This document shows, in pieces, positions 10,465 through 39,448 of a DNA stretch of 62,965 nucleotides. A program made the position numbers and the translations under genes. The stretch covers positions 1 through 62,965 of the forward strand of contig JAGWPB010000008.1 of assembly GCA_028870665.1 (NCBI GenBank), read 5' to 3'. Position 1 is the stretch's first letter, and every line of letters begins with the position of its first letter. Source of the stretch: Lysobacteraceae bacterium (lineage in GTDB: Bacteria; Pseudomonadota; Gammaproteobacteria; Xanthomonadales; Rhodanobacteraceae). A model generated the notes under the pieces. That model was not told the origin of the DNA. It did not search any database and saw only the letters and a list, made by a program, of their open reading frames with translations.

Positions 10465-10800
10465 TCATCCGGCGCGATTGACGGACGTCATCTCGAAGCG
10501 TGCATCGCGTCCGCGGCGCTGCGGCAGGCGACGGCTGGCCGCCATCACCGCGCGCGCCAGGGTGGCATCCAGATGCAGCAGTCGTTCACCCAGCGGCAGT
10601 TTGTCGCGCAGCGCTTCGCTGACACCGAGCCAGGCCAGCCAGCGCGCCAGACGGCTGCGCTCCACCGCGCTCAATGCGCGCAGTGCCGCGCGTGCGCTGA
10701 ATGCGTGACGACGCACGCCGTCGGTCGCGTCCAGCCAGGCGGCAAAGTTGCGTTGCGCGTGGCGATACGCGGGGTTGAGCACGAGTTCGGCTGCGGTCAT
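10465..10800 (-). CDS. Small hypothetical protein, Arg/Ala-rich, divergent from TetR regulator
   Basis: 111 aa, soluble, strongly basic and alpha-helical in appearance (many Ala, Arg and Leu), with no signal peptide or membrane segment. No family recognised. Its ATG at 10800 is 67 bp from the divergent TetR-type regulator, and the intervening DNA carries a strong inverted repeat, so it is likely repressed by that regulator. Coding status is supported by position and typical high-GC codon pattern only, so moderate confidence. Confidence 0.55.
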   Translation of the reverse strand: MTAAELVLNPAYRHAQRNFAAWLDATDGVRRHAFSARAALRALSAVERSRLARWLAWLGVSEALRDKLPLGERLLHLDATLARAVMAASRRLPQRRGRDARFEMTSVNRAG

Positions 10801-10833
10801 GGCATCGGGGCCGGCGGCTTGGGTACCGCGCTG

Positions 10834-10864
10834 GATTATTAGTGAACTTGATCGTATAATAATC
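10834..10864. promoter_or_regulatory. Inverted-repeat operator and -10 box in the TetR divergent intergenic region
   Basis: Perfect 8-bp arms GATTATTA (10834-10841) and TAATAATC (10857-10864) are separated by 15 bp, in an AT-rich island within otherwise GC-rich DNA. The right arm overlaps a consensus TATAAT (10855-10860) only 8 bp before the regulator ATG, so transcript and start codon are close together, near-leaderless. Position and symmetry fit an autoregulatory TetR operator controlling both divergent genes. Binding is inferred. Confidence 0.6.
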
Positions 10865-10867
10865 AGC

Positions 10868-11530
10868 ATGAACCCGGCAAGCAAGCCCGTCGATCCCGCT
10901 CGTCCCTGCGGCCCTGGCCGGCCCAAGGACATGGGCAAGCGGCTGGCCATACTCGAGGCCGCAAAGCAGCTGTTCGTGCAGCACGGCTACGAAGGCACCA
11001 GCATGGACGCGGTGGCGGCGGAAGCCGGCGTTTCCAAGCTCACCGTCTACAGCCACTTCGGCGACAAGGACCGCCTGTTTCGCGAGGCCATCCGGGCCCG
11101 CTGCCAGGCGCTGATCCCGGATGCGCTGTTCCACGCCAATGGCGGCGGCATCCGCGCCGCGCTGCTGCAGATCGCCCAGGCGCATGCCGACGCGATGGTC
11201 AGCGCCGAGGCCATCGGCACGTGGCGGGCCATCGTCAGCGACTGCCGCGAGGGCAACCCGCGCCTCGGTCAGCTGCTGTGGGAGGAAGGTCCGGCGCGCG
11301 GTCATGCGCTGATGGAGCAGTTCCTCGAGGCTGCCGTCGCCGGGGGCGAGCTGGATATCCCCGACGTGCATCGGGCGGCGGTGCAGTTTCTGGCCCTGCT
11401 CAAGGGCGACATGCACCTCAGACGCCTGTTCGGCTGCGAGGGCGACTGCCTCGAGACCATCGAGCGCGAAGTGCGCGCCAACGTGGTCGCGGCCGTGGAG
11501 ATGTTCCTGCGCGCCTACGCGCCGCGCTGA
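10868..11530 (+). CDS. TetR/AcrR family transcriptional regulator
   Basis: 220 aa. The N-terminal helix-turn-helix is clear: AILEAAKQLFVQHGYEGTSM then AVAAEAGVSKLTVYSHFGDK. The C-terminal ligand domain (residues about 85-220) resembles the AefR-like/TetR_C_7 group often linked to efflux control. The start ATG at 10868 is fixed by the adjacent -10 box. The likely targets are itself and the divergent small gene, through the 10834-10864 palindrome. Effector unknown. Confidence 0.88.
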   Translation: MNPASKPVDPARPCGPGRPKDMGKRLAILEAAKQLFVQHGYEGTSMDAVAAEAGVSKLTVYSHFGDKDRLFREAIRARCQALIPDALFHANGGGIRAALLQIAQAHADAMVSAEAIGTWRAIVSDCREGNPRLGQLLWEEGPARGHALMEQFLEAAVAGGELDIPDVHRAAVQFLALLKGDMHLRRLFGCEGDCLETIEREVRANVVAAVEMFLRAYAPR

Positions 11531-11576
11531 CCGGCGGCTCGCCGGCCGCATCCGCTTCGTGCTTGAATAGAGGACG

Positions 11577-13585
<2,009 letters not shown>

Positions 13586-13631
13586 GGGAAATCGTGGTCA
13601 AGTCCAGGCCGGTGCACGAGGGGCGCTCGCG

Positions 13632-15473: not shown

Positions 15474-15546
15474 TGCCGCGGCGCGGACGCGGCGGCGCGC
15501 CGATCGCACGGTGTTGCTGCCAGGTGCTGCCGAGGTTCCGAACCGA

Positions 15547-16095
15547 TCAGAAGTTGGGCCGGGTCGGCGCCGCGTTGAAACGCGCCACGCTGGCTTCGAT
15601 CTCGGCGCGCGCGGCCGCGGCATCGCCCCAGCCCGACAGCTTCACCCACTTGCCCTTCTCGAGATCCTTGTAGTGCTCGAAGAAGTGGCCGATGCGCTCC
15701 AGCCAGTGGCCCGACACCTGGTTGATGTCACTGATGTGGGCGTAGCCGTTGAACACCTTCGACGTCGGTACCGCGATCAGCTTGGTGTCCTCGCCGGCCT
15801 CGTCGGTCATGTTGAGCATGCCGACCGGGCGGCAGCGGATCACCGCGCCGGGAATCAGCGACAGCGGCAGGATCACCAGCACGTCGACCGGGTCGCCGTC
15901 ACCGCACAGCGTGTGCGGCACGTAGCCGTAGTTGCAGGGATAGCGCATCGGCGTCGACAGGATGCGGTCGACGAAGATCGCGCCGGTGGCCTTGTCGACC
16001 TCGTATTTGACCGGCTCGGCGTCTTTCGGGATTTCGATGACGACGTTGATCTCGTGCGGGACGTCGCGGCCGGCGGGGACCAGGTCCAGGCCCAT
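15547..16095 (-). CDS. ppa: Inorganic pyrophosphatase
   Basis: 182 aa family I soluble pyrophosphatase hydrolysing PPi to phosphate in the cytoplasm. The active-site signature appears as DGDPVDVLV (Asp ligands for Mg), with [13 protein letters not shown] before it and [15 protein letters not shown] after it. Start taken at ATG 16095 (MGLDLVPAG), matching family N-termini; an upstream in-frame ATG adds 14 non-conserved residues. It is a housekeeping gene, convergent with the fusion gene before it. Confidence 0.96.
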
Positions 16096-25390: not shown

Positions 25391-25714
25391 TCAGGTCGGC
25401 GGATCGAGCACCACGGCGGTGCCGTAGGCCACGATCTCGCTCATCGTCTGCCCGATTTCGGCGGAATCGAAGCGCATCATCACCACCGCGTTGGCGCCCA
25501 TCGCGCTGGCGTTGGCGACCAGGCGGTCCAGCGCATGCCGACGCGCCTCCTCCAGCATCTGCGTGTATTCGTGGATTTCGCCGCCAACCAGCGAGCGCAG
25601 GCCGGCCATCACGTTGCCGCCGATGCCGCGGCTGCGCACCACCACCCCGAACACCTGCCCCTTGACCTGCAGGACCTGGTGACCCGGCACGTTCTCGGTC
25701 GTGACCACGATCAT
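25391..25714 (-). CDS. YbjQ family (heavy-metal-binding domain, DUF74) protein
   Basis: 107 aa. MIVVTTENVPGHQVLQVKGQVFGVVVRS, GGEIHEYTQMLEEARRHALDRL and the ANAVVMMRFDS strand are the conserved UPF0145/YbjQ blocks. The proteins form pentameric rings; a metal link is suggested by the name but not proven. A GGAGG sits 7 bases from ATG 25714 and only 1 base from the upstream ATG 25720, so 25714 is preferred. Confidence 0.92.
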   Translation of the reverse strand: MIVVTTENVPGHQVLQVKGQVFGVVVRSRGIGGNVMAGLRSLVGGEIHEYTQMLEEARRHALDRLVANASAMGANAVVMMRFDSAEIGQTMSEIVAYGTAVVLDPPT

Positions 25715-26040
25715 CGCCATCCCTCCTTCGTCGAGCGGAAAGGCCGCGCCGGCACGGCAGCGCGGGCGCCTCACGATACGCGGCGTGCGCGAGGCGGGGA
25801 AGCGGCGCCATCGGCACGCCGCGGTCGCCGGCCGGCCGGGCACGCAGGCGCTGCCCAGGAGGCGGCTGCGTGCCGGTCTTGCCAGGGCCGGGTCATCGGC
25901 AGCGGGCCGCGCTCGCCGATCCCCCCGGTGGTGGCGTTCGGCACTGTCGGGCCGGAGCCCGAACCGCGTCGGGTCCAGCACGAACGGCGTCTGGCCGCAC
26001 CGGGGCAGGGTTGGACTTCGCCGCTACCCGTCGCGCCGAC

Positions 26041-26101: not shown

Positions 26102-26368
26102 ATGATCACCGCCGCCCAACTGCGCGCCGCGCGCGCCCTGCTCGGCTTCGACCAGCGTCAGCTGGCCGAGCGCAGCGGGCTGTCGCTGCCGACCATCCAG
26201 CGCATGGAAGCCAGCGACGGCACGGTGCGCGGCAACGTCGATTCGCTGGTCAAGCTGATCGACGCGCTGGAGCGGGCCGGCGTGGTTCTGCTCGGCGAAG
26301 GTCAGCCCAGTACCGAGGGCGGGCGCGGGGTGCGTCTGCAACCCCAGACGCAGGAGTCGCGTGCGTGA
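26102..26368 (+). CDS. Small XRE/Cro-type HTH regulator coupled to the hyf-like operon
   Basis: 88 aa. Nearly the whole protein is one helix-turn-helix domain: LRAARALLGFDQRQLAERSGLSLPTIQRME, then a helix SLVKLIDALERAGVVLL. No effector domain. Its stop overlaps the hyfB GTG start (GTGA at 26365-26368), so it is translated with the complex. Small XRE proteins of this type are often autoregulators or cofactor-free repressors; here it is likely the operon switch. Its own promoter lies in the AT-rich patch just upstream. Confidence 0.88.
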   Translation: MITAAQLRAARALLGFDQRQLAERSGLSLPTIQRMEASDGTVRGNVDSLVKLIDALERAGVVLLGEGQPSTEGGRGVRLQPQTQESRA

Positions 26369-28371
26369 ACACGGGAGCCCTGGCGCTGGCGCTGGCCGGC
26401 GCGGCCGTGGTCGCGGCGCTGGCCTCGGCAGCCAGCGGGCTGCTCGCGACGCGCTGGCCGCGCACGCTGTCGTGGCTGGCGTTTCCGCTGCTGGCCCTGT
26501 GCGGCGCGACGGCGCTGGCGGCGGGGTTGCTGGCGCTCGCCGGCGACACCACGACCACCGCGATCCTGCCGCTCGGCCTGCCGTGGCTGCCGTGGCATGT
26601 GCGCCTCGATCCGCTGAGCGGCGTGTTTCTGCTGATTCTCGGCGCGGTGCTGGTGCCGGTGGCGATCTACGGCCCGGGCTATACGCGCGCGTTTCGCAAC
26701 GGCCGCGACTCGCTGGCGGCGCTGGGCGTGTTCACCGGGCTGTTCGTGACCGGCATGCTGGGCGTGGTGCTGGCCGCCGACGCCTTCCTGTTCATGGTGG
26801 CGTGGGAGCTGATGTCGCTGGCGTCGTATTTTCTGGTGACGTTCCAGCACGAGGTCGCCGAGCATCGGCGCGCGGCCTTTCTGTATCTGCTGATGGCGCA
26901 TGTCGCCGGGCTGGCGATCCTGCTTGCCTTCGGCGTGCTGGCCGCCAGCGGCGGCAGTTTCGCGTTTGCGGCGATGCGTTCGCATCCGCCGGATGCGCTG
27001 TGGGCATCGGTGGCGTTTGCGCTGGCGCTGCTGGGTTTCGGCACCAAGGCCGGTCTGCTGCCGCTGCATCTGTGGCTGCCGGAAGCGCATCCGGCCGCGC
27101 CCTCGCACATCTCGGCGCTGATGTCGGCGGTGATGCTCAAGGTCGCGGTCTACGGTTTCATGCGCGTGGTGTTCGAACTGCTCGGCCCGCCGCAGTGGGG
27201 CTGGGGCGTGACGCTGGTGCTGGTCGGCGCCACGACGGCGGTGGTCGGCGTGCTGTTCGCGCTGCAGCAGACCGACCTCAAGCGCCTGCTGGCCTACTCC
27301 TCGGTGGAAAATCTCGGCATCGTGTTCCTGGCGCTGGGTCTGGCGCTGATTTTCCTCGGCAGCGGCCATCCCGCGCTGGCCGCGCTGGCGCTGGTGGCGG
27401 CGCTGTATCAGTCGCTCAATCACGCGCTGCTGAAAGGCCTGCTGTTTCTCGGCGCCGGCGCAGTGCTGCATGGCGCTCACGAGCGCAACCTCGAGCGCCT
27501 GGGCGGACTGCAGCGGCGCATGCCGCGCACCGGACTGTTTTTCCTGATCGGCTGCATGGGCATGGCGGCGCTGCCGCCGCTGAACGGCTTCGTGTCGGAG
27601 TGGCTGACCTTCCAGGCGGCGCTGCAGGCATGGCAGCTCGGCAGCGGCCTGCTGCGCATCCTGGTGCCGGTGGCGGCGGCGGCACTGGCGCTGACCGCGG
27701 CGCTGGGTGCGGCTGCCTTCGTGCGCGCCTACGGCAGCGCGTTCCTGGGTCGCGCGCGCACCCGCCATGTGCGCCGCGCCCATGAGGTCGGCGTCGGGAT
27801 GCGCCTGGCGCAGGCGCTGCTGGTGGCCGCCTGCGCCGCGGCCGCCCTGCTGCCGACCACGCTGGTCGGCCTGTTCGCGACGGCGACGCGGCAGCTGACC
27901 GGCGCCGGTCTGGATCAGGCCGGCAGCCGCGGCTGGCTGTGGCTGACGCCGATCGCGCCCGACGTGGCCAGCTACGCGCCGATCCCGATCCTGCTGGTAC
28001 TGGCGCTGCTCGGCGCCTCGCTGGTCTGGGCGTTGCGACCGTCGCGCCAGGTGCCGGTGCGGCGGGCCGATCCCTGGGATTGCGGTTTCGCGCCGCCGAC
28101 GCCGCGCATGCAGTATTCCGCGGCGGGTTTCGCGCAGCCGATCCGGCGCGTCTTCGCGATGGTCTACGCGCTCGACGAGGACACCGATGCGGCGGCCGCG
28201 ACGCACCGGCTGCTGGTGCGCGATCGCCTCTGGGGCTGGCTGTATGCGCCGCTGGGCGTCGCCCTGGACCGGCTTGCCGAATTGGCGCGCCGCGCCCAGA
28301 CCGGGCATGTGCGGCGCTATCTCTCCTGGTCGCTGATCACCCTGCTGGTGCTGCTGTGGATCATTTCCTGA
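26365..28371 (+). CDS. hyfB: Ehr/Hyf complex antiporter-like membrane subunit (HyfB-like)
   Basis: 668 aa, NuoL/NuoM/MrpA-type proton-translocating subunit with about 14 or more hydrophobic segments. The proton-channel region is visible in LLMAHVAGLAILLAF, GTKAGLLPLHLWLPEAHPAAPSHISALMSAVMLK (the Lys/Glu pairs of antiporter-like subunits) and SLNHALLKGLLFLGAG. It would pump protons or Na+ using redox energy from HyfG/HyfI. GTG start overlapping the XRE stop. Closest named family is hydrogenase-4 subunit B; a respiratory hydrogenase role is not implied here (see HyfG). Confidence 0.92.
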   Translation: MNTGALALALAGAAVVAALASAASGLLATRWPRTLSWLAFPLLALCGATALAAGLLALAGDTTTTAILPLGLPWLPWHVRLDPLSGVFLLILGAVLVPVAIYGPGYTRAFRNGRDSLAALGVFTGLFVTGMLGVVLAADAFLFMVAWELMSLASYFLVTFQHEVAEHRRAAFLYLLMAHVAGLAILLAFGVLAASGGSFAFAAMRSHPPDALWASVAFALALLGFGTKAGLLPLHLWLPEAHPAAPSHISALMSAVMLKVAVYGFMRVVFELLGPPQWGWGVTLVLVGATTAVVGVLFALQQTDLKRLLAYSSVENLGIVFLALGLALIFLGSGHPALAALALVAALYQSLNHALLKGLLFLGAGAVLHGAHERNLERLGGLQRRMPRTGLFFLIGCMGMAALPPLNGFVSEWLTFQAALQAWQLGSGLLRILVPVAAAALALTAALGAAAFVRAYGSAFLGRARTRHVRRAHEVGVGMRLAQALLVAACAAAALLPTTLVGLFATATRQLTGAGLDQAGSRGWLWLTPIAPDVASYAPIPILLVLALLGASLVWALRPSRQVPVRRADPWDCGFAPPTPRMQYSAAGFAQPIRRVFAMVYALDEDTDAAAATHRLLVRDRLWGWLYAPLGVALDRLAELARRAQTGHVRRYLSWSLITLLVLLWIIS

Positions 28372-29324
28372 GTCCGCTCGCGCACGCGCTCTCCGCGCTG
28401 CTGCAGCCGCTGCTGCTGCTGACGGTCGCGCCGCTGCTGGTGGCGTGGATCCGCCGCGTCAAGGCGCGCCTGCAGAACCGTCGCGGCGCGTCGCTGCTGC
28501 AGCCGTATCGCGATCTGCGCAAGCTGTTCGCCAAGGAGGCGGTGGTGGCGCGCACGGCATCGCCGCTGTTTCGCGTCGCGCCGTATCTGGTGTTCGCCGC
28601 GACGCTGGTGGCCGCCGGCGCGCTGCCGCTGCTGTCGCTGCGCCTGCCCAGCGCGGCGGTAGCCGATGCGATCGCGGTGATCGGCCTGCTGGGGCTCGCG
28701 CGTTTCCTGCTGGTGCTGGCCGGCCTCGATGCCGGCACCCCGTTCGGGGGCATGGGCTCCTCGCGCGAGATGCTGGTGAGCACCTTTGCCGAGCCGGCGC
28801 TGCTGCTGGTGGTGTTCACCCTGGCGATGACCGCGCACAGCACCAATCTCGCCAGCATGGCGCAGACGACGCTGCATGCCGGCCTCGTCCTGCGACCCTC
28901 GTATTTGTTCGCGCTGGCGGCGTTGCTGCTGGTGGCGATCGCCGAATGCGGACGCATTCCGGTGGACAACCCCGCCACCCATCTCGAGCTGACCATGATC
29001 CACGAGGGCATGCTGCTCGAGTACAGCGGTCGCCACCTGGCGCTGATGGAGTGGGCGGCGCAGCTGAAGCTGGCGCTGTTCGCGGTGCTGATCGTGGATC
29101 TGTTCCTGCCCTGGGGCATCGCCGCCGGCTTCGCGCCGGGTGCGCTGGCCCGGGCGGCGCTGGCGCTGGCGCTGAAGCTGGGCGCGCTGGGCGCGCTGCT
29201 GGCGGTGGCCGAGACGGCGCTGGCCAAGATGCGCCTGTTCCGCGTGCCGGGCTTTCTCAATCTGGCTTTCATGCTGGCCCTGCTCGGCCTGCTCAGCCAC
29301 GTCATCCTGGAGGCCGCGACGTGA
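28356..29324 (+). CDS. hyfC: Ehr/Hyf complex membrane anchor subunit (HyfC/NuoH-like)
   Basis: 322 aa with about eight membrane helices. The NuoH-type quinone-chamber loops are seen as GASLLQPYRDLRKLFAKE after the first helix and NPATHLELTMIHEGMLLEYSGRHLALMEW with conserved acids. It connects the soluble redox arm to the antiporter subunits. GTG start, overlapping the hyfB end by 16 bp. The same fold serves complex I and group 4 hydrogenases. Confidence 0.92.
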   Translation: MDHFLSPLAHALSALLQPLLLLTVAPLLVAWIRRVKARLQNRRGASLLQPYRDLRKLFAKEAVVARTASPLFRVAPYLVFAATLVAAGALPLLSLRLPSAAVADAIAVIGLLGLARFLLVLAGLDAGTPFGGMGSSREMLVSTFAEPALLLVVFTLAMTAHSTNLASMAQTTLHAGLVLRPSYLFALAALLLVAIAECGRIPVDNPATHLELTMIHEGMLLEYSGRHLALMEWAAQLKLALFAVLIVDLFLPWGIAAGFAPGALARAALALALKLGALGALLAVAETALAKMRLFRVPGFLNLAFMLALLGLLSHVILEAAT

Positions 29325-30025
29325 ATCCCGCCGCGCTGCCGCTGCTCGACCAGGCGCTGCTGGTGCTGGCCGCGATGGCGTTGTTCACCGCCTTCGCGCT
29401 GCTGGCGCAGACGCGGCTGACCGCGGCGATCCACACCTTCGCCTGGCAGGGCGCGCTGGTGGCGGCGGTGGCGGCGTTGACCGGACGCGCCAGCGGGGAT
29501 GCGCATCTGTATGTGTCGGCGCTGATCACGCTGGCGCTGAAGGTGGCGCTGATTCCGTGGATGCTGCACCGGTTGGTGCGGCGGCTGGCGCTGGAGCGGC
29601 AGGCCGACCCGCTGGAGCATCCCGCGCTGACCCTGCTGGCCGGCGCCGGCATCGTGGTGTTCAGCGACTGGGTCGCCGAGCCGGTGGCGCACTTCGATGC
29701 CAGCGCGACGCGCAACGTCATCGCCATCAGCCTGGCGATCGTGCTGCTCGGCATGCTGATGATGGTGGTACGACGGCAGGCAGTGGCGCAGGTACTGGGC
29801 TTCATGGCGATGGAGAACGGCCTGTTCCTGGCCGCGGTCGCCAGCACCCACGGCATGCCGCTGGTGGTCGAGCTGGGCGTCGCCTTCGACGTGCTGGTGG
29901 CGATGGTGCTGTTCGGCGTGTTCTTCCTGCAGATCAAGAACAGCATCGATTCCCTGGACATCGACCGCCTCAGCCAGCTCGCCGAACCGGTCGAGGATGA
30001 CGACGTGCGCGGAGACGCGCCGTGA
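29321..30025 (+). CDS. hyfE: Ehr/Hyf complex membrane subunit (HyfE-like)
   Basis: 234 aa membrane protein. The first half is three to four helices; the second half (VVRRQAVAQVLGFMAMENGLFLAAV) is a NuoK/MrpC-like segment with a buried Glu in MENGLF, typical of HyfE. An acidic cytoplasmic C-terminus follows. GTG start with 4-bp GTGA overlap with the hyfC stop, and a GTGA overlap with hyfF at its own end. Confidence 0.9.
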   Translation: MNPAALPLLDQALLVLAAMALFTAFALLAQTRLTAAIHTFAWQGALVAAVAALTGRASGDAHLYVSALITLALKVALIPWMLHRLVRRLALERQADPLEHPALTLLAGAGIVVFSDWVAEPVAHFDASATRNVIAISLAIVLLGMLMMVVRRQAVAQVLGFMAMENGLFLAAVASTHGMPLVVELGVAFDVLVAMVLFGVFFLQIKNSIDSLDIDRLSQLAEPVEDDDVRGDAP

Positions 30026-31497
30026 TCGCGCTGCTGCTGACGGTGTTCACGCCGCTGGCCGGGATGCTGCTGCTCGGCGCCCTGCGCAGCGCGCGTGTCG
30101 CCGGCTGGCTGAATCTGGCGCTTTGCGCGCTGAGCCTCGCCGGCGCGCTGTGGCTGGCCGCCGACGTGCTGGCGCACGGTGCCGTCGCCGGCGCCAGCTT
30201 CCGCGTCGATGCGCTGAGCGTCTATCTGGTCGTGCTGACGGCGCTGGTCGGTCTGACCACGGCGATCTTCTCGCGTCCCTACATGCGCTACGTGCACGAG
30301 GAAAGGCGTGTCACCCGCGGCGGCTTGCGCCTGTACCACAGCATGTACCAGGGCTTCCTGTTCACCATGCTGCTGGCGCTGACCACCGACAATCTCGGCA
30401 TCCTCTGGGTGGCGGTGGAAGGCGCCACGCTGGCGACCGTGCTGCTGGTGTCGCTGTACCGCACGCCGGCGGCGATCGAGGCGGCGTGGAAGTACTTCAT
30501 CCTCTGCGGCGTCGGCATCGCGCAGGCGCTGTTCGGTACCGTGACCCTGTATTTTGCGGCCCAGCACGCGCTGGCGGATCCCGCCGCCAACGGCCTGAGC
30601 TGGAGCGCGCTGTATGCGGTCGCGCCGCAGCTGGAGCCGCGGGTGATGAGCGTCGCCTTCGTGTTCCTGCTGGTCGGCTACGGCACCAAGGTCGGCCTGG
30701 TGCCGCTGCACAGCTGGCTGCCGGATGCGCATTCGGAGGGCCCGACGCCGATGTCGGCGGTGCTCTCGGGCCTGCTGCTCAACGTCGCCCTGTACGCGGT
30801 GGTGCGCATGAAGATGCTGACCGACGCCGCGCTCGCCGGCAGCGCCACGCCCGATCTTGCCGGGCATCTGCTGATGGGCTTCGGCCTGGTCAGCTTCCTG
30901 GTGGCGGCGATCTCGCTGCAGCGCCGGCGCGACATCAAGCGGCTCTTCAGCTATTCGTCGATCGAGCACATGGGCCTGATGACGTTCGGTTTCGGCGTCG
31001 GCGGCCCGCTGGCCACCTTCGCCGCGCTGCTGCACATGCTGGTGCACGCGCTGACCAAGTCGGCGATCTTCATCACCGTCGGTCATGCCACCCACATCAG
31101 CCGCACCCAGCGCATCGACCGCATCCGCGGCCTGATCCGCACCCAGCCCGCGGTCGGCTGGGGCCTGCTGATCGGTGTCGCCGCGATCGCCGGCTTTCCG
31201 CCGTTCGGCATCTTCACCAGCGAGTTTCTGCTGCTGTCGGCGACCATGCATGCGTGGCCGTGGCTGACGATCCCGCTGATGATCGGCCTGGTGGTGGCCT
31301 TCGCCGGATTGTTCCGGTCGGTGCAGCCGATGGTGTTCGGCGCGGCGCCGCCGGGGCAGTATCCGGTGCGCGCCAACATGCTGCCGGTGATCATGCAGCT
31401 GGCGCTGGTGCTGCTGCTCGGCATCGCGCTGCCGGGGCTGCTGGCGCACTGGCTCGACCAGGCCACGCAACTGATCACCGGGAGGCATCTGCTGTGA
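30022..31497 (+). CDS. hyfF: Ehr/Hyf complex antiporter-like membrane subunit (HyfF-like)
   Basis: 491 aa, second NuoL/M/N-type subunit. Conserved blocks: VEGATLATVLLVSLY, KYFILCGVGIAQALFG, GTKVGLVPLHSWLPDAHSEGPTPMSAVLSGLLLNVALY (channel Lys and Glu region) and LLHMLVHALTKSAIFI. With HyfB it gives the complex two putative ion channels. GTG start, coupled to hyfE; its stop overlaps the hyfG start. There is no third antiporter-like subunit (HyfD) in the cluster. Confidence 0.92.
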   Translation: MIALLLTVFTPLAGMLLLGALRSARVAGWLNLALCALSLAGALWLAADVLAHGAVAGASFRVDALSVYLVVLTALVGLTTAIFSRPYMRYVHEERRVTRGGLRLYHSMYQGFLFTMLLALTTDNLGILWVAVEGATLATVLLVSLYRTPAAIEAAWKYFILCGVGIAQALFGTVTLYFAAQHALADPAANGLSWSALYAVAPQLEPRVMSVAFVFLLVGYGTKVGLVPLHSWLPDAHSEGPTPMSAVLSGLLLNVALYAVVRMKMLTDAALAGSATPDLAGHLLMGFGLVSFLVAAISLQRRRDIKRLFSYSSIEHMGLMTFGFGVGGPLATFAALLHMLVHALTKSAIFITVGHATHISRTQRIDRIRGLIRTQPAVGWGLLIGVAAIAGFPPFGIFTSEFLLLSATMHAWPWLTIPLMIGLVVAFAGLFRSVQPMVFGAAPPGQYPVRANMLPVIMQLALVLLLGIALPGLLAHWLDQATQLITGRHLL

Positions 31498-33074
31498 TGG
31501 CCCAGGCTTTCGCCGAGCGCCTGCGTGCGGCCCTGCCGGGCGTGGCGCTGTCGCCGCGCACCGAGTCCGGGCTGATGCCGGCGATGGTGCTCGCGGTGAG
31601 CGCCGCCGACTGGGCCGCGCTGGGCACGGCCGCGCACGCTCTCGGCGCGCGCTGGGCGGCGTGCTGGGTCGATCCCGAGCCGGACCATTGGCGTGCCTGG
31701 GTCCTGTACGAACAGGGCGGCGCCTACGTGCTGGCGCAGACGCTGCTCGATCCGCGGGCGCCGCGGCTGCCCAGCCTCGCCGCGGTCTACGCCGCCGCCG
31801 ATCGCCCGGAACGCGCGATCCGCGACCTGCTCGGCGTCGACTTCGAGGGTCATCCCGATGCGCGGCGCTGGCTGCGCCATCAGGCCTGGCGTGCGCAGGA
31901 GCATCCGCTGCGGCCGGAACAACCGCTGGCCGGTGCGCCGCCGGCCCGCGCGCCCGCCGACACCGGATACCCGTTCCGCCGGATCGCCGGCGACGCCGTG
32001 CACGAGGTCGCCGTCGGGCCGATTCACGCCGGCACCATCGAGCCGGGGCACTTCCGCTTCGCCGCCGTCGGCGAGCAGGCGCTGACGCTGGAGACGCGGC
32101 TGGGCTACACCCATCGCGGCGTCGAGAAACTCGCCGTCGGTCGCGACGCCGAGGGCCTGCTGCGGCTGGCCGCGCGGGTGGCCGGCGATTCGACCGTGGC
32201 GCACGCCTGGGCCGCCTGCATGGCGATGGAGCGCGCCGCCGGCTGCGCGGTACCGGCGCGCGCGCTGGCGCTGCGCGCCCTGCTGGCCGAGCGCGAGCGG
32301 GTGGCCAATCACCTGGGCGACGTCGGCGGCATCGCCAACGACGTCGGCTTCAGCTTCGCCCAGATGCAGTTCGGCGCACTGCGCGAGCGCTGGCAGCGGC
32401 GCAGCGCGGTGCTGTTCGGTCATCGCCTGCTGATGGATGCACTGTGCGCAGGCGGCGTGCGTACCGATCTCGACCTCGCAGGCACGCAGGCGCTGCTGCA
32501 GGATCACGCCCGGTTGCGCGCCGAGCTGGCGCCGCTGGTCGACATCCTGCTCGACCACCCTTCGCTCGAGGATCGCCTGGTCGGCGCCGGCGTGCTGGGC
32601 ACGGCCGATGCGCGGGCGCTGGGTTGCCTGGGCTATCTCGGGCGCGCGTCGGGACTGGCCTTCGACCTGCGTCGCGACGCGCCGTATCCGCCCTATGACC
32701 GCTTGCCGGTGCGCGTGCCGCTCTACGACAGCGGCGACGTGGCGGCGCGGATGCGCGTGCGGCTGGACGAGATCGACGTCGCGCTGGAGCTGATGGACAC
32801 GCTGCTGGCGGCGCTGCCGCCGGGCCCGGTGTCCACGCACTGGGAGGCGCCGCCGGCCGGCGCGCGCGGTCTCGGTCTGGTCGAGGGCTGGCGCGGCGAG
32901 ACCCTGGCGTTCGTGCGCTTCGGCGCCGACGGCCGCGTTGCACGCTACGCGCCGCGCGACCCCGGCGTGTTCGCCTGGCCGGCGCTGGAGCGCCTGCTGC
33001 CGGGCAACATCATTCCCGACTTCCCGGTCTGCAACAAATCCGTCAACGGCTCCTACGCCGGCGGCGATCTCTGA
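31497..33074 (+). CDS. hyfG: Hydrogenase-like large subunit lacking Ni-Fe ligands (HyfG/NuoCD-like)
   Basis: 525 aa: a NuoC-like domain (about 1-150, FEGHPDARRWLRHQAW near its end) fused to a NuoD/HycE-like domain (VGPIHAGTIEPGHFRF, TRLGYTHRGVEKL). In true group 4 hydrogenases an N-terminal CxxC and a C-terminal CxxC bind Ni-Fe. Here the first site reads RVAGDSTVAHAWA (about 227-239) and the C-terminus reads NKSVNGSYAGGDL; both pairs are gone, as in complex I NuoD and in Ehr complexes. No hydrogenase maturation protease site or hyp genes are present. A GGAGG at 31481 supports ATG 31497, though GTG 31494 is possible. It cannot be a H2 enzyme on this evidence; substrate unknown. Confidence 0.9.
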   Translation: MAQAFAERLRAALPGVALSPRTESGLMPAMVLAVSAADWAALGTAAHALGARWAACWVDPEPDHWRAWVLYEQGGAYVLAQTLLDPRAPRLPSLAAVYAAADRPERAIRDLLGVDFEGHPDARRWLRHQAWRAQEHPLRPEQPLAGAPPARAPADTGYPFRRIAGDAVHEVAVGPIHAGTIEPGHFRFAAVGEQALTLETRLGYTHRGVEKLAVGRDAEGLLRLAARVAGDSTVAHAWAACMAMERAAGCAVPARALALRALLAERERVANHLGDVGGIANDVGFSFAQMQFGALRERWQRRSAVLFGHRLLMDALCAGGVRTDLDLAGTQALLQDHARLRAELAPLVDILLDHPSLEDRLVGAGVLGTADARALGCLGYLGRASGLAFDLRRDAPYPPYDRLPVRVPLYDSGDVAARMRVRLDEIDVALELMDTLLAALPPGPVSTHWEAPPAGARGLGLVEGWRGETLAFVRFGADGRVARYAPRDPGVFAWPALERLLPGNIIPDFPVCNKSVNGSYAGGDL

Positions 33075-33081
33075 GGCGGCC

Positions 33082-33594
33082 ATGCTGCGCATCCTGCATC
33101 GCGTGATCACCACCGGCACCCTGACCGAGCCGCTCGACACGTCGGCCTCGCTCGAGTCGCTGGGGATCGAGGTACGGCGCACGCTGGGTGCGCGCTACGC
33201 CGGCAGCTTCGCCATCCGCCACGTCGATGCCGGCTCCTGCAACGGCTGCGAACTGGAGATCCACGCGCTCGGCAACCCCTATCACGACCTTGAGCGCTTC
33301 GGCGTGCGTTTCGTCGCCTCGCCGCGCCATGCCGACGCGCTGCTGGTCACCGGCGTGGTCAGCCGGCACATGCAGGAGGCCTTGCTGCGCGCGCACGCGG
33401 CGATGGCCAAACCCGGCCTGGTGATCGCCGCCGGCGCCTGCGCCTGCGATGGCGGCGAGTTCGGCGCGAACTATGCCAGCCTCGGCGCGGTGGCGAACGT
33501 GCTGCCGGTGGACGTGCGCATTCCCGGCTGCCCGCCGCCGCCCGCGCTGCTGTTGCGCGGACTGCTGGCGGCGCTGGGCCGCGCGACGCCCTGA
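33082..33594 (+). CDS. hyfI: Ehr/Hyf complex small subunit (HyfI/NuoB-like)
   Basis: 170 aa. Ligands for one proximal [4Fe-4S] cluster are kept: Cys53-x2-Cys56 (GSCNGCELE), Cys120 (GACACDGG) and Cys150 (IPGCPPPP). It uses the hydrogenase-type CxxC, not the adjacent-Cys pair of NuoB. It docks between HyfG and HyfC. No NuoI/HyfH-type subunit with two [4Fe-4S] clusters follows, so the electron path beyond this cluster is undefined. The gene ends the operon and its stop is only 4 bp from the convergent S10 peptidase stop. Confidence 0.92.
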   Translation: MLRILHRVITTGTLTEPLDTSASLESLGIEVRRTLGARYAGSFAIRHVDAGSCNGCELEIHALGNPYHDLERFGVRFVASPRHADALLVTGVVSRHMQEALLRAHAAMAKPGLVIAAGACACDGGEFGANYASLGAVANVLPVDVRIPGCPPPPALLLRGLLAALGRATP

Positions 33595-33598
33595 GCGG

Positions 33599-35188
33599 CT
33601 ACTTCGCGGTGGCCGGCTCGCGGTCGCTGGCGCGAATGAAGGACGCGATGTTGGCGTGCAGCGTGGCGAGGTCCGCGGGCCGCACGTAGATCATGTGCCC
33701 GGTGTGATAGAACCGGTATTCGATGTTCTTCTGCAGCCGGGCCTGCATCGGCAGCTGCCGCATCTGGTACACCGCCGCGTAGTACGGGGTGGCCAGATCG
33801 TAGTAGCCGGCGTTGACCATCACCTTCAGATCGGGGTTGTAGCTCATCGCCGCGGCCAGGTCGGGCAGCACGTTGGTGCCGACGAACGCGACCGCGGTCG
33901 TCTGGCCCGGCAGGACGTGGCTGAAGACCCAGTCGTTGCCCACGCTGCCGGCGACCGTCTTGTAGTTGTGGTCGCCGCCGAACTTCAGCGTCTTGCGCAC
34001 GTAGTCGTTGAACGCCGCGGTGTAGGCGGAGCTGATCGCCGCGCTCTGCGGGTCGTAGGCCGCCGTCTCCGCCAGCGGGTCCATGGTCGGGCCGGAGAAG
34101 CGCGCATCCAGGCGCCCGCCGGTCTCGCCGCGCGGCAGCAGCAGGGTCTGCTCGAACTCGGGGCCGGTGACGCGCAGGTCGGCCCTGAGCAGGTAGCTCT
34201 CGGGCAGGCCGGTGTACTGCGCCATCTGCCGGGCGATGGCCTGCTCCTGCGCCGGCGCCAGTGCGCTGCCCTCATTGAGCGCCTGCAGGTACGGTCCCAT
34301 CGCCCAGGTCTGCACCTGGTCCAGCCACGGGTGCAGGGTGGCCGGCGGATGGGCCAGCGCCTTGTGGTACCAGGCAGTGGCGGCATAGGTGGGCAGACCC
34401 AGCGCGTAGGTGAGGTTGACGCCGGGATTGAGATTGGGCGTGTCGATCGCGGTGTCGAAGTTGAGAATGGTCGACAGCAGCACGACGCCGTTGAGATCGA
34501 TGTTGTCCTGCTGCTCGAGGATGTTGGCCAGCACCGCCGAGCGCGTGGTGCCGTAACTTTCGCCGATCAGGTACTTGGGCGAATTCCAGCGCCCGTAGCG
34601 GGACAGGAACGTGCTGATGAACTGGGCAAAGGCCTGGCCGTCGGGATCGACGCCGTAGAACATCTTCGGCGTGCCGACGCCGCCCTGCTGCTTGTCGAGG
34701 ATGCGGCTGAAGCCGGTGCCCACGGCGTCGACGAACACCAGGTCGCTGGCGTCGAGCAGGCTGTCGGCGTTGCTGACCAGCGCATACGGCGCCGGCGGCG
34801 TGTGGCGGTGGCTGTCGGTGACCACGCGGACCGGACCGAAGCCGCCCATGTGCAGCCAGACCGAGGACGAGCCCGGGCCGCCGTTGTAGAGGAAGGCGAT
34901 CGGGCGCCGCGCCGGATCCGCGTCGCGCTTGAAGTAGGCGACATAGAACATCTCGCCGGTGGGCCTGCCCTGCTTGTCATGCAGGATCAGCGTGCCGGCG
35001 TCGGCGGTATAGGCGATGTGCCGGCCGTCGATCGTCACGCCGCCCGCGGTCGTCGCGGTGTGCGCGGTGCTCCAGTAATGCCCGGACGGGGCCGCGGTAG
35101 CCGGCTTCGCGCCGGAGGACGGGGCGGCGACGGCGGCCAGCGGCAGCAGCGCGGCGACCAGGGCGGGCGACAGCAGACGGATGCGCAT
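33599..35188 (-). CDS. Peptidase S10 (serine carboxypeptidase-like) family, secreted
   Basis: 529 aa with a signal peptide (about 1-22, AAVAAP). Oxyanion-hole segment LYNGGPGSSSVWLHMGGFGP and nucleophile Ser211 in LIGESYGTTRS; the Asp is in NAGYYDLATPYYA and the His in HTGHMIY near the C-terminus. The family is common in Xanthomonadales and probably trims C-terminal residues from peptides in the periplasm or outside the cell. Convergent with the hyf operon; solitary otherwise. Confidence 0.92.
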   Translation of the reverse strand: MRIRLLSPALVAALLPLAAVAAPSSGAKPATAAPSGHYWSTAHTATTAGGVTIDGRHIAYTADAGTLILHDKQGRPTGEMFYVAYFKRDADPARRPIAFLYNGGPGSSSVWLHMGGFGPVRVVTDSHRHTPPAPYALVSNADSLLDASDLVFVDAVGTGFSRILDKQQGGVGTPKMFYGVDPDGQAFAQFISTFLSRYGRWNSPKYLIGESYGTTRSAVLANILEQQDNIDLNGVVLLSTILNFDTAIDTPNLNPGVNLTYALGLPTYAATAWYHKALAHPPATLHPWLDQVQTWAMGPYLQALNEGSALAPAQEQAIARQMAQYTGLPESYLLRADLRVTGPEFEQTLLLPRGETGGRLDARFSGPTMDPLAETAAYDPQSAAISSAYTAAFNDYVRKTLKFGGDHNYKTVAGSVGNDWVFSHVLPGQTTAVAFVGTNVLPDLAAAMSYNPDLKVMVNAGYYDLATPYYAAVYQMRQLPMQARLQKNIEYRFYHTGHMIYVRPADLATLHANIASFIRASDREPATAK

Positions 35189-36283: not shown

Positions 36284-37060
36284 ATGAGCGCTGCCGTCCA
36301 GCGCCCGCTCGCGGGCGCCCATGTCGTGATCACCCGCCCCGCGGGTGACGGCGCCGCGCTGGCGCGCCGGGTCCGCGGACTCGGTGGCGTGCCGCTGCGG
36401 CTGCCGGGCAGCAGCCTGCGCGCCGTCGCGGATGTCGCGTCGGCGCGCGCGGCGCTGGCCGCGGCGCTGCGTGGCGCTGCGCTGGTGTTCGTCAGCCCGG
36501 CCGCGGTGCGTTTCGCGGCGCGATTGGCACCGCTGCGGCCGGCGCCGGCGACGCGCGTGCTGGCGGTCGGTCAGGCCACCGCGCGTGCCTTGCTGCGCCA
36601 CGGCGTCCCGGATGCCGGCGTGCCGCGGCGCCAGGACAGCGAAGGCCTGCTGGGGCTGGCGCCGCTGGATGCGCCGCGCGGTCGCATGATCGCCGTCGTC
36701 GGCGCCGCCGGCGGTCGCGGCCTGCTGCAGCGGCAGCTGCGCGCGCGGGGCGCCACGCTGCGCGAGGTCACGGTGTATCGACGCCTGCCGGCGCGGCTCG
36801 ATACGCGCCACCTGGCCCCGCTCGCCGCCGCGCGCGATCCGCTGTACCTGCTGCTGTCGAGCAGCGAGGCGCTGAATCATCTGCGCGCCGCACTGCCCGC
36901 GCCGGCGTGGGCGCGCCTGCGGCGCGCCACCGCGATTGTCAGCAGCGAGCGCCTGGCGGCGGCGGCGCGTGCGGCCGGCTTGCTGCGCGTGCACGTGGCG
37001 GCCTCCGCGCTGGCGCCCGATCTGCTGTCCGCCGTCATCGCCGCGCATGCGCGGCAATGA
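36284..37060 (+). CDS. hemD: Uroporphyrinogen-III synthase
   Basis: 258 aa, the family length. It cyclises hydroxymethylbilane with D-ring inversion to uroporphyrinogen III for heme. The sequence is poorly conserved as usual; recognisable parts are VVITRPAGDGAALARRVRGLGG, LVFVSPAAVRFAARL and the C-terminal SSEALNHL region. Followed by hemX and hemY, the standard HemCDXY order (hemC is not in the window). Confidence 0.9.
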   Translation: MSAAVQRPLAGAHVVITRPAGDGAALARRVRGLGGVPLRLPGSSLRAVADVASARAALAAALRGAALVFVSPAAVRFAARLAPLRPAPATRVLAVGQATARALLRHGVPDAGVPRRQDSEGLLGLAPLDAPRGRMIAVVGAAGGRGLLQRQLRARGATLREVTVYRRLPARLDTRHLAPLAAARDPLYLLLSSSEALNHLRAALPAPAWARLRRATAIVSSERLAAAARAAGLLRVHVAASALAPDLLSAVIAAHARQ

Positions 37061-37118
37061 GCCGCGACCGGGCCTGTTGCACGTGGCTATTTGCCGGGAG
37101 GGACACTAGCATTCACGC

Positions 37119-38183
37119 ATGAACGATCCCGATCCCGATGGCGCTGCAGGCAAGGCGTCGCGTGCCCGCGGCGGCGTGCGCATCCGGCTGCTGCTGTTCG
37201 TCTGCGTAGCGCTTGCCGCGCTGTTTGCCGCGCTGGTCTGGCGCGTCTGGCAGGACCACCGCGCCGGCGCCGTGACCCAGGCGGGGGTGGGCGCGCTGTC
37301 CGGTCGCGTCGCGACGCTCGAGGACGCCCTTGCCAGCCTGCAGCAGGAGCGCGCCGGCCTGCGCCAACGCCTGCAGGATGCCGACACCACCAATCGCGCA
37401 CTGCGCGAGCAGCTGTTCGGGCTGGACCTGCGCACACGCACCCTCGAGGGCGCCGTCGCCAGCCTCTCCGAGCAGCACTTCGCCGTTGCCGATGCGCTGC
37501 GTCTCGATGAGGTCGAGATGCTGCTGCGCATGGCCCAGGAGCGCTACCTGCTGTTTCATGACGCGGCCGGCGCCCTGCAGGCGACCACGCTGGCGGGGCA
37601 GGTGCTGGCGGCGGTCAGCGATCCCGCCTATGCCGAACTCGCGCCGACCGTCGAGGCGCAGCGGCAGGCGCTGCTGGCGGCGCAATTGCCGGCGCGCACC
37701 GCGGATCTGGCGACGCTCGGGCGTCTGCGCGCGCAGGTGCCGCTGCTGCCGATTCGTCGCGATGATCGCGCGTCGACCGCATCGCCGCAGGGCGTGCTGG
37801 CGCGCATCGGCGCCGCCTTGTCGGGTCTGGTCCGCATCCAGCGCAGCGCACACGCGCCGCTCGCCGCCGCCAGCGCCGGTCTCGCGCGCGAGCTGCTGAT
37901 GCTGGATCTGGCGCAGGCGCAGTCGGCGCTGCTGGCGTGGGACCGCGCCGGCTTCCACGCCGCGCTGCAGGACGCGCGCACCCTGCTCGTGCTGCGCTTC
38001 GATCCCGCCGCCGACGACGTGCGGGCCGCGACGGCGGATCTGGCCCGACTGCTCGCGCAACCGCAGCCCGCCGCCGCGCCCGATCTCGACGCCGCGCTGG
38101 CGCAGCTGCGCAATCTGCGCGCGACCCATGCACTCAAGCCGGTTGTGCCGGCGACGGTTCCGGCCAAGGGTCGTGCGCGATGA
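37119..38183 (+). CDS. hemX: HemX-type membrane protein (uroporphyrinogen-III C-methyltransferase-like annotation)
   Basis: 354 aa with one membrane helix (about 24-43, LLLFVCVALAALFAALVWRV) and a long coiled-coil domain with LQQERAGLRQRLQDADTTNR and VASLSEQHFAVADALRLDEVEMLLRMAQERYLL. The product is commonly called a uroporphyrinogen C-methyltransferase, but no SAM-binding motif is visible, so that name should not be taken literally. It is thought to assist heme synthesis with HemY. Coupled to hemY by an ATGA overlap. Confidence 0.9.
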   Translation: MNDPDPDGAAGKASRARGGVRIRLLLFVCVALAALFAALVWRVWQDHRAGAVTQAGVGALSGRVATLEDALASLQQERAGLRQRLQDADTTNRALREQLFGLDLRTRTLEGAVASLSEQHFAVADALRLDEVEMLLRMAQERYLLFHDAAGALQATTLAGQVLAAVSDPAYAELAPTVEAQRQALLAAQLPARTADLATLGRLRAQVPLLPIRRDDRASTASPQGVLARIGAALSGLVRIQRSAHAPLAAASAGLARELLMLDLAQAQSALLAWDRAGFHAALQDARTLLVLRFDPAADDVRAATADLARLLAQPQPAAAPDLDAALAQLRNLRATHALKPVVPATVPAKGRAR

Positions 38184-39448
38184 ACGCCTGGCGCTGGCTG
38201 CTGCTGTTGCTGCTGCTGGCGCTGGCTGCGGCGCTGGGCTGGCACTGGCTGGCCAGCGATCCGGGCTACGTGCTGCTGCGCTGGCGCGGCTGGCAGCTCG
38301 AGACCACGGTGATCGCCGGCGCCGCGCTGGTGCTGCTGGGCTGGGCGCTGCTGAGCGTGCTGTGGCGCACGCTGCGCTGGCCGTTCGGCGCGCTGTCGCG
38401 ACGCCATCGGCGGATCAGCCGCAAGCGTTTCTCGGAGGGCCTGATCGCCCTGATCGAGGGTCGCCATGGCGAGGCCGAGCGCGCGCTGGCGCGCGCCGCG
38501 CGCTATCCGCCGCTGCGCGCGGTCGCGTTGCTGGTCGAGGCCGAGGCCGCCTGGCGCCGCGGCGAACCCGAGCGCGCGCTGGAGGCGCTGGACGAGGCCA
38601 CCCAGCATGCGCCGCGCGCGGCGCGCGTGCTGCGCGCCCGCGTGCTGCGGCGCGAGGGTCGGGCCCAGGAGGCGTTGGCGCTGCTGGTGCCGGAGGCCGA
38701 GACCCAGCGCCTGGCGCCGGCCGGCTGGCTGGAGCTGGCCGAGGCCGCGCTCGCCGCCGGTCGCATCGATCGCGCCCGTGCCGCGCTGGATCCTCTGCGT
38801 GCCAGCGGCGCGCTCAGTCCGCGCGCCTATGGCGCGTTCGAGGCGCGGGTGCTGGCGGCGGCGCTGGAGGATGCCTCGGGCGCGGCGGCGCTGAATGCAC
38901 TGTGGGCCGGCCTCGCGCGCGGTCAGCGCCATGTCCCCGGCGTGGTGGCGGCCTACGCGCGCCGGGCCGCTGCCTGTGGCGCCGGGCTCGCGGCGCAGGA
39001 CGAGATCGAGACGGCGCTGGCCGGCGACTGGTCGCCGGAGCTGGTACTGGCCTATGCCGACCTCGATGACGGCACGCTCGACGCGCGTCGCCGTCGCGCC
39101 GAGCAATGGCTGGAGGCACACCCCAACGATGCCGCGCTGCTGATCGCGCTGGGGCGCATGGCGGTGCGCCGGCAGCAGTGGTCGCCGGCGCGCGACTGGC
39201 TGGAGCGGGCGGTGGCACTGGAGCCCTCGAGCCTGGCCTGGGAGTCGCTCGGCGATGCGCACGGCGGGCAGGGCGACGTCGCGCGTGCCGCCACCTGCTA
39301 CCGCAATGCCCTGCGGCTGGCGCGCGGGGAGGGCACCGATGCCCTGGCGGGCCGCGGCGGGCGCATGGACACGCGGCCGATCGCGGTCGAGGAGCGCAGC
39401 GAACTGGGCGTGCCGCGGCTGCCCGGCGGGTCGCCCGCGTCGCGCTGA
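38180..39448 (+). CDS. hemY: HemY heme biosynthesis-associated TPR protein
   Basis: 422 aa: two N-terminal membrane helices (about 4-22 and 42-62), then TPR-like repeats (about 100-400, e.g. ALLIALGRMAVRRQQWSPARDWLERA). The conserved FPFGALSRRHRRISRKR-type loop follows the second helix. Role in the late steps of heme synthesis is indirect; it should not be confused with the Bacillus HemY oxidase. It ends the hem operon. Confidence 0.93.
   Translation: MNAWRWLLLLLLLALAAALGWHWLASDPGYVLLRWRGWQLETTVIAGAALVLLGWALLSVLWRTLRWPFGALSRRHRRISRKRFSEGLIALIEGRHGEAERALARAARYPPLRAVALLVEAEAAWRRGEPERALEALDEATQHAPRAARVLRARVLRREGRAQEALALLVPEAETQRLAPAGWLELAEAALAAGRIDRARAALDPLRASGALSPRAYGAFEARVLAAALEDASGAAALNALWAGLARGQRHVPGVVAAYARRAAACGAGLAAQDEIETALAGDWSPELVLAYADLDDGTLDARRRRAEQWLEAHPNDAALLIALGRMAVRRQQWSPARDWLERAVALEPSSLAWESLGDAHGGQGDVARAATCYRNALRLARGEGTDALAGRGGRMDTRPIAVEERSELGVPRLPGGSPASR

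What the first reader, a model, noticed from the sequence alone, without database searches (positions are those of the whole stretch)
26365..33594. Hydrogenase-related (Ehr) proton-pumping complex without a Ni-Fe site and without a ferredoxin subunit
Six contiguous genes encode the order hyfB, C, E, F, G, I: two antiporter-like subunits, a NuoH-like anchor, a HyfE subunit, a NuoCD-like large subunit and a one-cluster small subunit. Seen directly: the large subunit has lost both Cys pairs (RVAGDSTVAHAWA in place of the first; NKSVNGSYAGGDL at the end), while HyfI keeps all four cluster ligands. There is no NuoI/HyfH polyferredoxin, no third antiporter-like HyfD and no maturation gene. Known: complexes of this type (Ehr) sit between group 4 hydrogenases and complex I and have no established substrate. 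Inference: electrons pass through one [4Fe-4S] cluster to or from an unknown donor while ions are moved. Automatic naming as hydrogenase 4 would mislead.
Basis: partly seen in the sequence, partly recalled or inferred. Interest (0 to 1): 0.85.

Follow-up and report, generated by a model that had tools for sequence, protein, structure and literature searches.

The report
Hydrogenase-like ion pump without metal site
This stretch of bacterial DNA carries genes for a membrane machine built like a hydrogen-making enzyme and respiratory complex I but lacking the nickel-iron site; such 'Ehr' complexes are already known, and what they react with is still unknown.

Summary
Observation confirmed. Both Ni-Fe cysteine pairs of HyfG are replaced (A229/S232, S519/G522); in 81 sequences (80 loci plus window) none has both cysteines of either pair, one row being cut before the second. 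HyfI keeps four cluster cysteines; most ion-path residues of HyfB, HyfF and HyfC are kept. So: an Ehr complex, probably a redox-driven ion pump without hydrogenase chemistry. The exact hyfBCEFGI set with a non-hydrogenase subunit is published for Acidithiobacillus ferrooxidans (PMC7735108).

Added here: a C-terminal signature NKSxNxxYxxxDL (80 of 81 rows, the other cut); an aspartate called strictly conserved in hydrogenases and complex I is Asn in 81 of 81; complex I's quinone His/Tyr columns are Ile/Gly; three Ehr types in one Cys-less clade; HyfF and HyfI kept where the operon is scattered (6 of 6 genomes). Presence does not track RuBisCO, SoxB or HypD. 'No maturation gene' holds only locally: hyp genes and a group-1 hydrogenase lie elsewhere. 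Substrate and partner remain unknown; ferredoxin:quinone is my leading guess.

The parts
26102..26368 (+). XRE-type helix-turn-helix regulator, 88 aa, overlaps hyfB by 4 bases
   Evidence: HTH_3 E 6e-7; homologue directly upstream of hyfB in 25 of 52 fetched loci that have hyfB and more than 1 kb upstream (its printed 53 counts the window too); 67% identical protein in the same place with the same overlap in Rhizobium ruizarguesonis; not annotated in that place in the four other annotated plasmid loci
26365..28371 (+). HyfB, antiporter-like subunit, 668 aa
   Evidence: NF005086 792 bits; E148, K228, H242, K259, H353, K357, E412 kept in 66-67 of 67 rows; the HycC H328 column is Q349 here (H59 Q8)
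28356..29324 (+). HyfC, NuoH/HycD-like membrane anchor; probable GTG start at 28356 (read by eye)
   Evidence: NADHdh E 6e-42; R112, E134, E142, E193, E207, E213 kept in 70-71 of 71 rows; HycD Y102 is G106, E199 is A203 and E201 is H205
29321..30025 (+). HyfE membrane subunit, 234 aa
   Evidence: NF008556 87 bits, below its cut-off of 136; no Pfam match; 68 rows aligned
30022..31497 (+). HyfF, antiporter-like subunit, 491 aa
   Evidence: NF005045 709 bits; E133, K223, H237, H338, K346, E401 kept in 74-76 of 76 rows; the HycC K239 column is N254 in 76 of 76, as in E. coli HyfF
31497..33074 (+). HyfG, NuoCD/HycE-like large subunit without Ni-Fe ligands, 525 aa
   Evidence: 49 kDa E 3e-30 and 30 kDa E 3e-16; ligand columns; closest solved relative HycE of FHL
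33006..33071 (+). C-terminal signature NIIPDFPVCNKSVNGSYAGGDL, ending the protein where HycE Arg537 aligns
   Evidence: NKSxNxxYxxxDL at the very end in 80 of 81 rows, the other cut by its contig end;
33082..33594 (+). HyfI, one-cluster small subunit, 170 aa
   Evidence: Oxidored_q6 E 3e-29; CxxC + C120 + C150

Best explanation
This is an Ehr (energy-converting hydrogenase-related) complex: a redox-driven ion pump with the frame of a group 4 hydrogenase and no Ni-Fe centre. Shown: gene set, loss of the ligands, intact [4Fe-4S] ligands in HyfI, retained ion-path residues in HyfB and HyfF, and a remodelled but strongly conserved pocket sequence in HyfG. Inferred: one-electron transfer between a soluble low-potential carrier (ferredoxin or flavodoxin) and the single HyfI cluster, on the face that HyfH/NuoI would cover; a second substrate in the former Ni-Fe pocket; reaction there moves the HyfG/HyfC loops and drives ions through HyfC, E, F and B, reversibly. 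My leading guess for the second substrate is membrane quinone in a non-canonical pose (about 0.35), then an unknown small polar substrate (about 0.3). The confidence given here is for the ion-pumping, non-hydrogenase redox complex as a whole, not for quinone.
For: Best solved relative is HycE (315 bits) ahead of MbhL (185) and complex I (168 at best), and HycG for HyfI; the AlphaFold model of HyfG best matches HycE, TM 0.87. No row of 81 has both cysteines of either pair. HyfG ends where HycE Asp536-Arg537 align, and HycE has 32 more residues, so no tail to cleave. Antiporter-type Glu/Lys/His residues are mostly kept. E182, D231, R466, K514, S515, N517 are identical in 81 of 81 and Y520 in 80 with 1 gap, which points to selection on a function. 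In 6 of 6 purple sulfur bacterial genomes checked, HyfI and HyfF are kept although HyfI is away from hyfG, and in three of them HyfF is too. 25 of 45 genomes with the complex gave no HypD match. No redox partner recurs in the flanks, which fits a shared diffusible carrier.
Against: The two quinone residues of complex I are absent: the NuoCD His column is I181 and the NuoCD Tyr column is G230, each in 81 of 81. Two of three HycD loop glutamates and Tyr102 are replaced. No docking partner was found. The HyfG model is unreliable (pLDDT under 50) exactly at the pocket, so the pocket is drawn from alignment alone. No expression or activity data were seen for this organism. The complex tracks none of the three metabolic markers tested.
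Confidence: 0.65

Rival explanations
1. The pocket of HyfG handles an unknown small polar substrate (for example a C1 compound or another carboxylate) rather than quinone; HyfI exchanges electrons with a soluble carrier and ions are pumped.
For: The conserved residues at the former Ni-Fe site are polar or charged (E182, D231, R466, K514, S515, N517: 81 of 81; Y520: 80 and 1 gap) and the quinone residues are gone. Formate links have been proposed by others (PMC6349859, PMC7894505, PMC7735108; passages read).
Against: No formate dehydrogenase or other enzyme family was seen to recur beside the cluster (families read by eye; frames under 90 aa not included and many flanks cut short).
Confidence: 0.3
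2. It reduces or oxidises sulfane sulfur at an open iron of the HyfI cluster, as MBS of Pyrococcus does.
For: MBS also works without a Ni-Fe site and without the quinone residues (PMC7684303, passages read); many of the 80 closest relatives are sulfur oxidisers by name (lifestyle recalled).
Against: HyfI has the hydrogenase CxxC spacing with all four ligands, whereas MBS depends on one cysteine being out of reach; SoxB does not track the complex (16 of 45 against 134 of 324); the window's genome gave no SoxB match.
Confidence: 0.07
3. No redox substrate at HyfG: the soluble arm is a relic or a redox sensor gating an antiporter-like membrane arm.
For: No partner gene and no Ni-Fe, quinone or MBS-type site could be shown.
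Against: The pocket sequence is very strongly conserved, with the same signature in copies from Alpha-, Beta- and Gammaproteobacteria, and the cluster ligands too.
Confidence: 0.12
4. A true group 4 [NiFe] hydrogenase whose cysteines were misread.
For: hyp genes are present in the genome; 3 of 81 rows have one cysteine at a first-pair column.
Against: No row has both cysteines of either pair; no C-terminal extension; 25 of 45 genomes with the complex gave no HypD match; the hyp genes have a group-1-type hydrogenase to serve.
Confidence: 0.01

Closest known systems
hyfBCEFGI cluster of Acidithiobacillus ferrooxidans, DN052_15040-15065 (PMC7735108, passages read)
   Same: Same six gene names in the same order; large subunit classed as non-hydrogenase by HydDB
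   Different: Sequence not fetched here, so identity and the C-terminal signature were not compared
Ehr complexes of Sulfobacillus, comammox Nitrospira, Geobacter and Mycobacterium tuberculosis Rv0082-Rv0087 (PMC4378227, PMC10284858, PMC7894505, PMC6728331, PMC6901956; passages read)
   Same: Complex I/Hyf-like gene sets; described as lacking the Ni-Fe motif or (Geobacter, M. tuberculosis) as Ech- or hydrogenase-related; function unknown
   Different: Their sequences were not aligned here; M. tuberculosis has another regulator (rv0081)
E. coli hydrogenases 3 and 4 (HycE, HycG, HycD, HycC; Hyf)
   Same: Best structural relative; shares canopy Arg, loop Glu and most E-channel residues
   Different: Has Ni-Fe ligands, HycF/HyfH ferredoxin, a C-terminal extension and, in Hyf, a third antiporter-like subunit
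Respiratory complex I (NuoB, CD, H)
   Same: Shared fold and module plan
   Different: Adjacent Cys of NuoB, quinone His/Tyr, NuoI and the NADH module are missing here
MBS of Pyrococcus furiosus (PMC7684303, passages read)
   Same: Ni-Fe-less relative without quinone residues
   Different: Has ferredoxin subunit MbsN and a three-cysteine catalytic cluster
Hyf-like complex of strain Hiromi 1 (PMC4136832, passage read)
   Same: Hydrogenase-4-like complex without a ferredoxin subunit, in a sulfur oxidiser
   Different: Described as a formate hydrogenlyase; cysteine status not stated in the passage

Membership tests
Ehr complexes | Contiguous complex I/group 4-like gene set including HyfB, HyfE, NuoH-like, large and small subunits | tested here: met
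Ehr complexes | Large subunit without the Ni-Fe cysteine pairs | tested here: met
Ehr complexes | Large subunit branches with published Ehr sequences | not tested
   The tree holds only loci fetched here and E. coli references; no published Ehr sequence was fetched
Ehr complexes | Ion translocation | not testable with these tools
   Only retention of path residues was shown
Group 4 [NiFe] hydrogenase | Two CxxC pairs in the large subunit | tested here: not met
Group 4 [NiFe] hydrogenase | C-terminal extension removed by a protease | tested here: not met
   HyfG ends at L525, aligned with R537 of HycE, which has 32 more residues; the cut site itself is recalled
Group 4 [NiFe] hydrogenase | Ferredoxin-type subunit (HyfH/HycF) | tested here: not met
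   None in the cluster; of three NuoI-model matches in the genome only the one in the nuo operon passes the cut-off (144.6 bits; the others 21.3)
Complex I | Adjacent cysteines in NuoB | tested here: not met
   CxxC in HyfI
Complex I | Quinone-binding His and Tyr in NuoD | tested here: not met
   I181 and G230 in 81 of 81
MBS | Shortened Cys motif giving a three-cysteine cluster | tested here: not met
   HyfI aligns to MbhJ and HycG without a gap at the motif

The most novel reading that the evidence does not exclude
The type A Ehr complex (signature NKSxNxxYxxxDL) carries out a fourth chemistry in the complex I superfamily, beside proton, quinone and sulfane-sulfur reduction: a small polar substrate is turned over in the remodelled pocket next to a fully ligated cluster and drives ion pumping. 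It would be found from Rhizobium and Burkholderia to purple sulfur bacteria and methanotrophs.
Probability: 0.3. Interest if true: 0.85.

Novelty: new member of a known kind. Interest (0 to 1): 0.42.

Why it matters
Complexes of this type are common (45 of 369 genomes drawn from this class), are named in records as hydrogenase 4, formate hydrogenlyase or NADH dehydrogenase, and the papers seen give no established substrate. The signature and the residue table offer a way to sort them from real hydrogenases and name the residues to mutate in a cultivated carrier, so the open question becomes testable.

Tried and rejected
Autotrophy or sulfur oxidation as the role: suggested by the names of the 80 closest hits (the best 80 of 359) but not borne out. 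In 369 class genomes: RuBisCO 22 of 45 with the complex against 153 of 324 without (p 0.87), SoxB 16 of 45 against 134 of 324 (p 0.52), HypD 20 of 45 against 122 of 324 (p 0.42). In the 31 closer-scoring genomes: RuBisCO 20 of 31 (p 0.09), SoxB 14 of 31 (p 0.71), HypD 16 of 31 (p 0.18). In the 14 weaker-scoring ones: RuBisCO 2 of 14 (p 0.025, the opposite way), SoxB 2 of 14 (p 0.05), HypD 4 of 14 (p 0.58). Of the 46 genomes over the threshold one (G148, 275 bits) was dropped because its match proved to be of another Ehr type. Relatedness was not corrected for, and some genomes are incomplete.

Partner gene in the flanks (frames of 90 aa or more, families read by eye): besides the HTH family, families in more than 6 of 81 loci were reverse-frame artefacts or thioesterase-like and lipoprotein-like genes whose examples lie in the closest relatives. 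Ferredoxin-motif frames in 2 of 81 loci (L036, L054), a beta-carbonic-anhydrase motif in 1 of 81, SulP transporter matches in 5 of 80, one of them only 23% identical and two directly downstream of hyfI. Many flanks are cut by contig ends: 53 loci (window included) have hyfB and over 1 kb upstream, 61 have hyfI and over 1 kb downstream.

FNR-type box: 9 of 65 upstream regions hold a site with 2 mismatches, none a better one, the window's best has 3; start points are approximate. Not supported.

Structure of the pocket: HyfG model pLDDT under 50 at residues 150-206 and 507-525; not used. The HyfI model was not searched. HyfE columns of the NuoK glutamates are not Glu, but neither are they in E. 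coli HyfE, and the alignment is weak; no conclusion.

Rows dropped before counts: hits under a score limit, and six rows with a stop inside the matched stretch (HyfE of L044, L056, L072, L076; HyfI of L043, L063). Rows counted, window included: HyfB 67, HyfC 71, HyfE 68, HyfF 76, HyfG 81, HyfI 70.
Full report
What is there. The window is one contig (C66) of a 2.6 Mb, 112-contig assembly, 91.5% complete. Its nearest named matches are metagenome-assembled genomes, one titled Rhodanobacter from a sample coded SulCav; that others of the series come from mine drainage is my recollection of the sample codes, not a tool result. From 26102 to 33594 seven genes run on the + strand: an HTH regulator, hyfB, hyfC, hyfE, hyfF, hyfG, hyfI. 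The next frame downstream points the other way and ends 4 bases after hyfI.

Large subunit. Against E. coli HycE the four Ni-Fe ligands fall on A229, S232, S519 and G522. In 81 sequences (80 loci plus the window) these columns are S77 A2 V1 C1; S64 T12 A3 C2; S76 A4 and 1 gap; G79 A1 and 1 gap. No row has both cysteines of either pair; three have one at a first-pair column, and the gapped row is cut by its contig end. The aspartate that PMC9474812 (passages read) calls strictly conserved in hydrogenases and complex I is N517 in 81 of 81. Kept in 81 of 81 are the loop Glu (E182), H272, E425 and the canopy Arg (R466). Different from HycE and identical in 81 of 81 are D231, C512 and K514. The residues aligned with the quinone His and Tyr columns of NuoCD are I181 and G230 in 81 of 81; that these are the columns of Nqo4 H38 and Y87 is read together.

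Signature. NKSxNxxYxxxDL closes the protein in 80 of 81 rows, the other being cut, in all 9 further type A rows taken from class genomes, and in 7 of 7 plasmid-borne copies looked at, from Methylocalor, Rhizobium, Variovorax, two Burkholderia, Cupriavidus and Azospirillum (7 of the 132 records with a match). C512 is not general: it is Ile in 5 of the 9 and in 4 of the 7. The protein ends where HycE Arg537 aligns; that mature HycE ends there is recalled.

Small subunit. HyfI keeps four cysteines in the hydrogenase spacing CxxC. That differs from the adjacent pair of complex I and from the shortened motif of MBS (PMC7684303, passages read).

Membrane subunits. HyfB E148, K228, H242, K259, H353, K357, E412 and HyfF E133, K223, H237, H338, K346, E401 are kept in nearly all rows, gaps aside. 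Not kept: the HycC H328 column in HyfB is Gln in the window and 7 others of 67, and the HycC K239 column in HyfF is Asn in 76 of 76, as in E. coli HyfF. HyfC keeps six E-channel residues but not Tyr102 (Gly in 67 of 71), and two HycD loop glutamates are A203 (A54 T10 S7) and H205 (71 of 71). This loop lies near the active site in FHL, so it seems to have changed along with the pocket (inference).

Relatives. Of 81 loci, 60 have BCEFGI in this order, 6 BCEFG, 1 CEFGIB, and 14 show fewer genes, many at contig ends. Of 369 class genomes 45 have the complex. In the window's genus 11 of 13 genomes do (one of the other two has only weaker matches), in 12 other genera of the family 0 of 12 (two have weaker matches), elsewhere in the order 1 of 16: mostly a genus trait. 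I fetched 17 stretches around matches. They hold 9 type A rows and two further types: order C, E, F, G, I, B with a ferredoxin motif in the HyfI frame (type B, 5 rows; motif seen in 4, the fifth contig is cut), and a similar order without it, two rows with HyfB twice (type C, 4 rows). None of these 9 type B and C rows has either Cys pair. In a 39-row tree types A, B and C each have 100% bootstrap, B with C 97/93, and all three together apart from HycE/HyfG and NuoD 98/94; the tool warns of long branches. Types are my labels.

Scattered operons. Six genomes of purple sulfur bacteria in which HyfI was missing next to hyfG (in three hyfG stood alone) were searched: 6 of 6 have HyfI elsewhere (284-310 bits) and 6 of 6 have HyfF, in one of them in two adjacent pieces. 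The neighbours I looked at, in four HyfI and two hyfG stretches, gave no hint of a redox partner (read by eye).

Rest of the genome. It has a complex I locus, a complete group-1-type [NiFe] large subunit on C61 with a small-subunit frame and two electron-transfer frames before it, a second, partial large-subunit match at the end of C64, and hypD with frames that look like hypA, B, E and F (frames other than HypD and the large subunits named by eye). These hydrogenases explain the hyp genes. No RuBisCO or SoxB match was found in it.

How it most likely works. See Best explanation. Shown: parts and residues. Inferred: electron entry at HyfI from a diffusible carrier, a second substrate in HyfG, coupling to ion movement. 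I rate the redox-pump reading at 0.65 and quinone as second substrate at about 0.35.

Known or new. Ehr complexes are described in PMC6349859, PMC10284858, PMC6688271, PMC10432482, PMC4378227, PMC7894505 and PMC6728331 (passages read). The hyfBCEFGI set with a non-hydrogenase subunit is in PMC7735108. Other papers call hyf clusters of this make-up hydrogenases (PMC13109103, PMC3826726; passages; their sequences not checked). PMC4136832 noted a missing ferredoxin subunit in such a complex. PMC6901956 describes the M. tuberculosis operon as regulated by rv0081. Marreiros et al. 2013, the founding comparison, was not read; I saw it only cited. I did not search the literature for the C-terminal signature or for the HTH gene, so I make no claim that they are unreported. 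Hence: a new member of a known kind, with useful detail.

Noticed in passing
L006 (C61) 11023-15909 and L007 (C64) 9202-15615: A group-1-type [NiFe] hydrogenase (small subunit, membrane and HdrD-like electron-transfer frames, large subunit) with a HycI-type protease at L006 10017-10613, and hyp-like frames on another contig whose end holds a second, partial large-subunit match.
   Followed up: partly
L049, L061, L089, L038, L065, L077: Ehr operon broken up in purple sulfur bacteria, hyfG standing alone or hyfI moved, yet HyfF and HyfI found in 6 of 6 genomes.
   Followed up: yes
L096, L097, L098, L101, L110; L095, L098, L099, L100: Two further Cys-less Ehr types with order C, E, F, G, I, B; type B has a ferredoxin motif in the HyfI frame; L098 holds two such clusters facing each other, and the Variovorax plasmid (L139) has the end of what looks like a second cluster upstream.
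   Followed up: partly
L137, L139, L140, L141: Plasmid Ehr clusters lie near YoaK-family (L137, L140, L141), spermidine-synthase (L139, L140, L141) or universal stress protein (L137, L139) genes, which might hint at a stress or low-oxygen role.
   Followed up: no
L044 12450-14195, L092 10017-11765: A SulP-like anion transporter gene (named by eye) directly downstream of hyfI on the same strand.
   Followed up: partly
window 33599-35188 and 25391-25807: Neighbours on the - strand: a serine-carboxypeptidase-like frame (by eye) and a YbjQ protein; no link to the complex is apparent.
   Followed up: no
window 36284-39448: Frames that look like heme-synthesis genes hemD, hemX and hemY (by eye).
   Followed up: no
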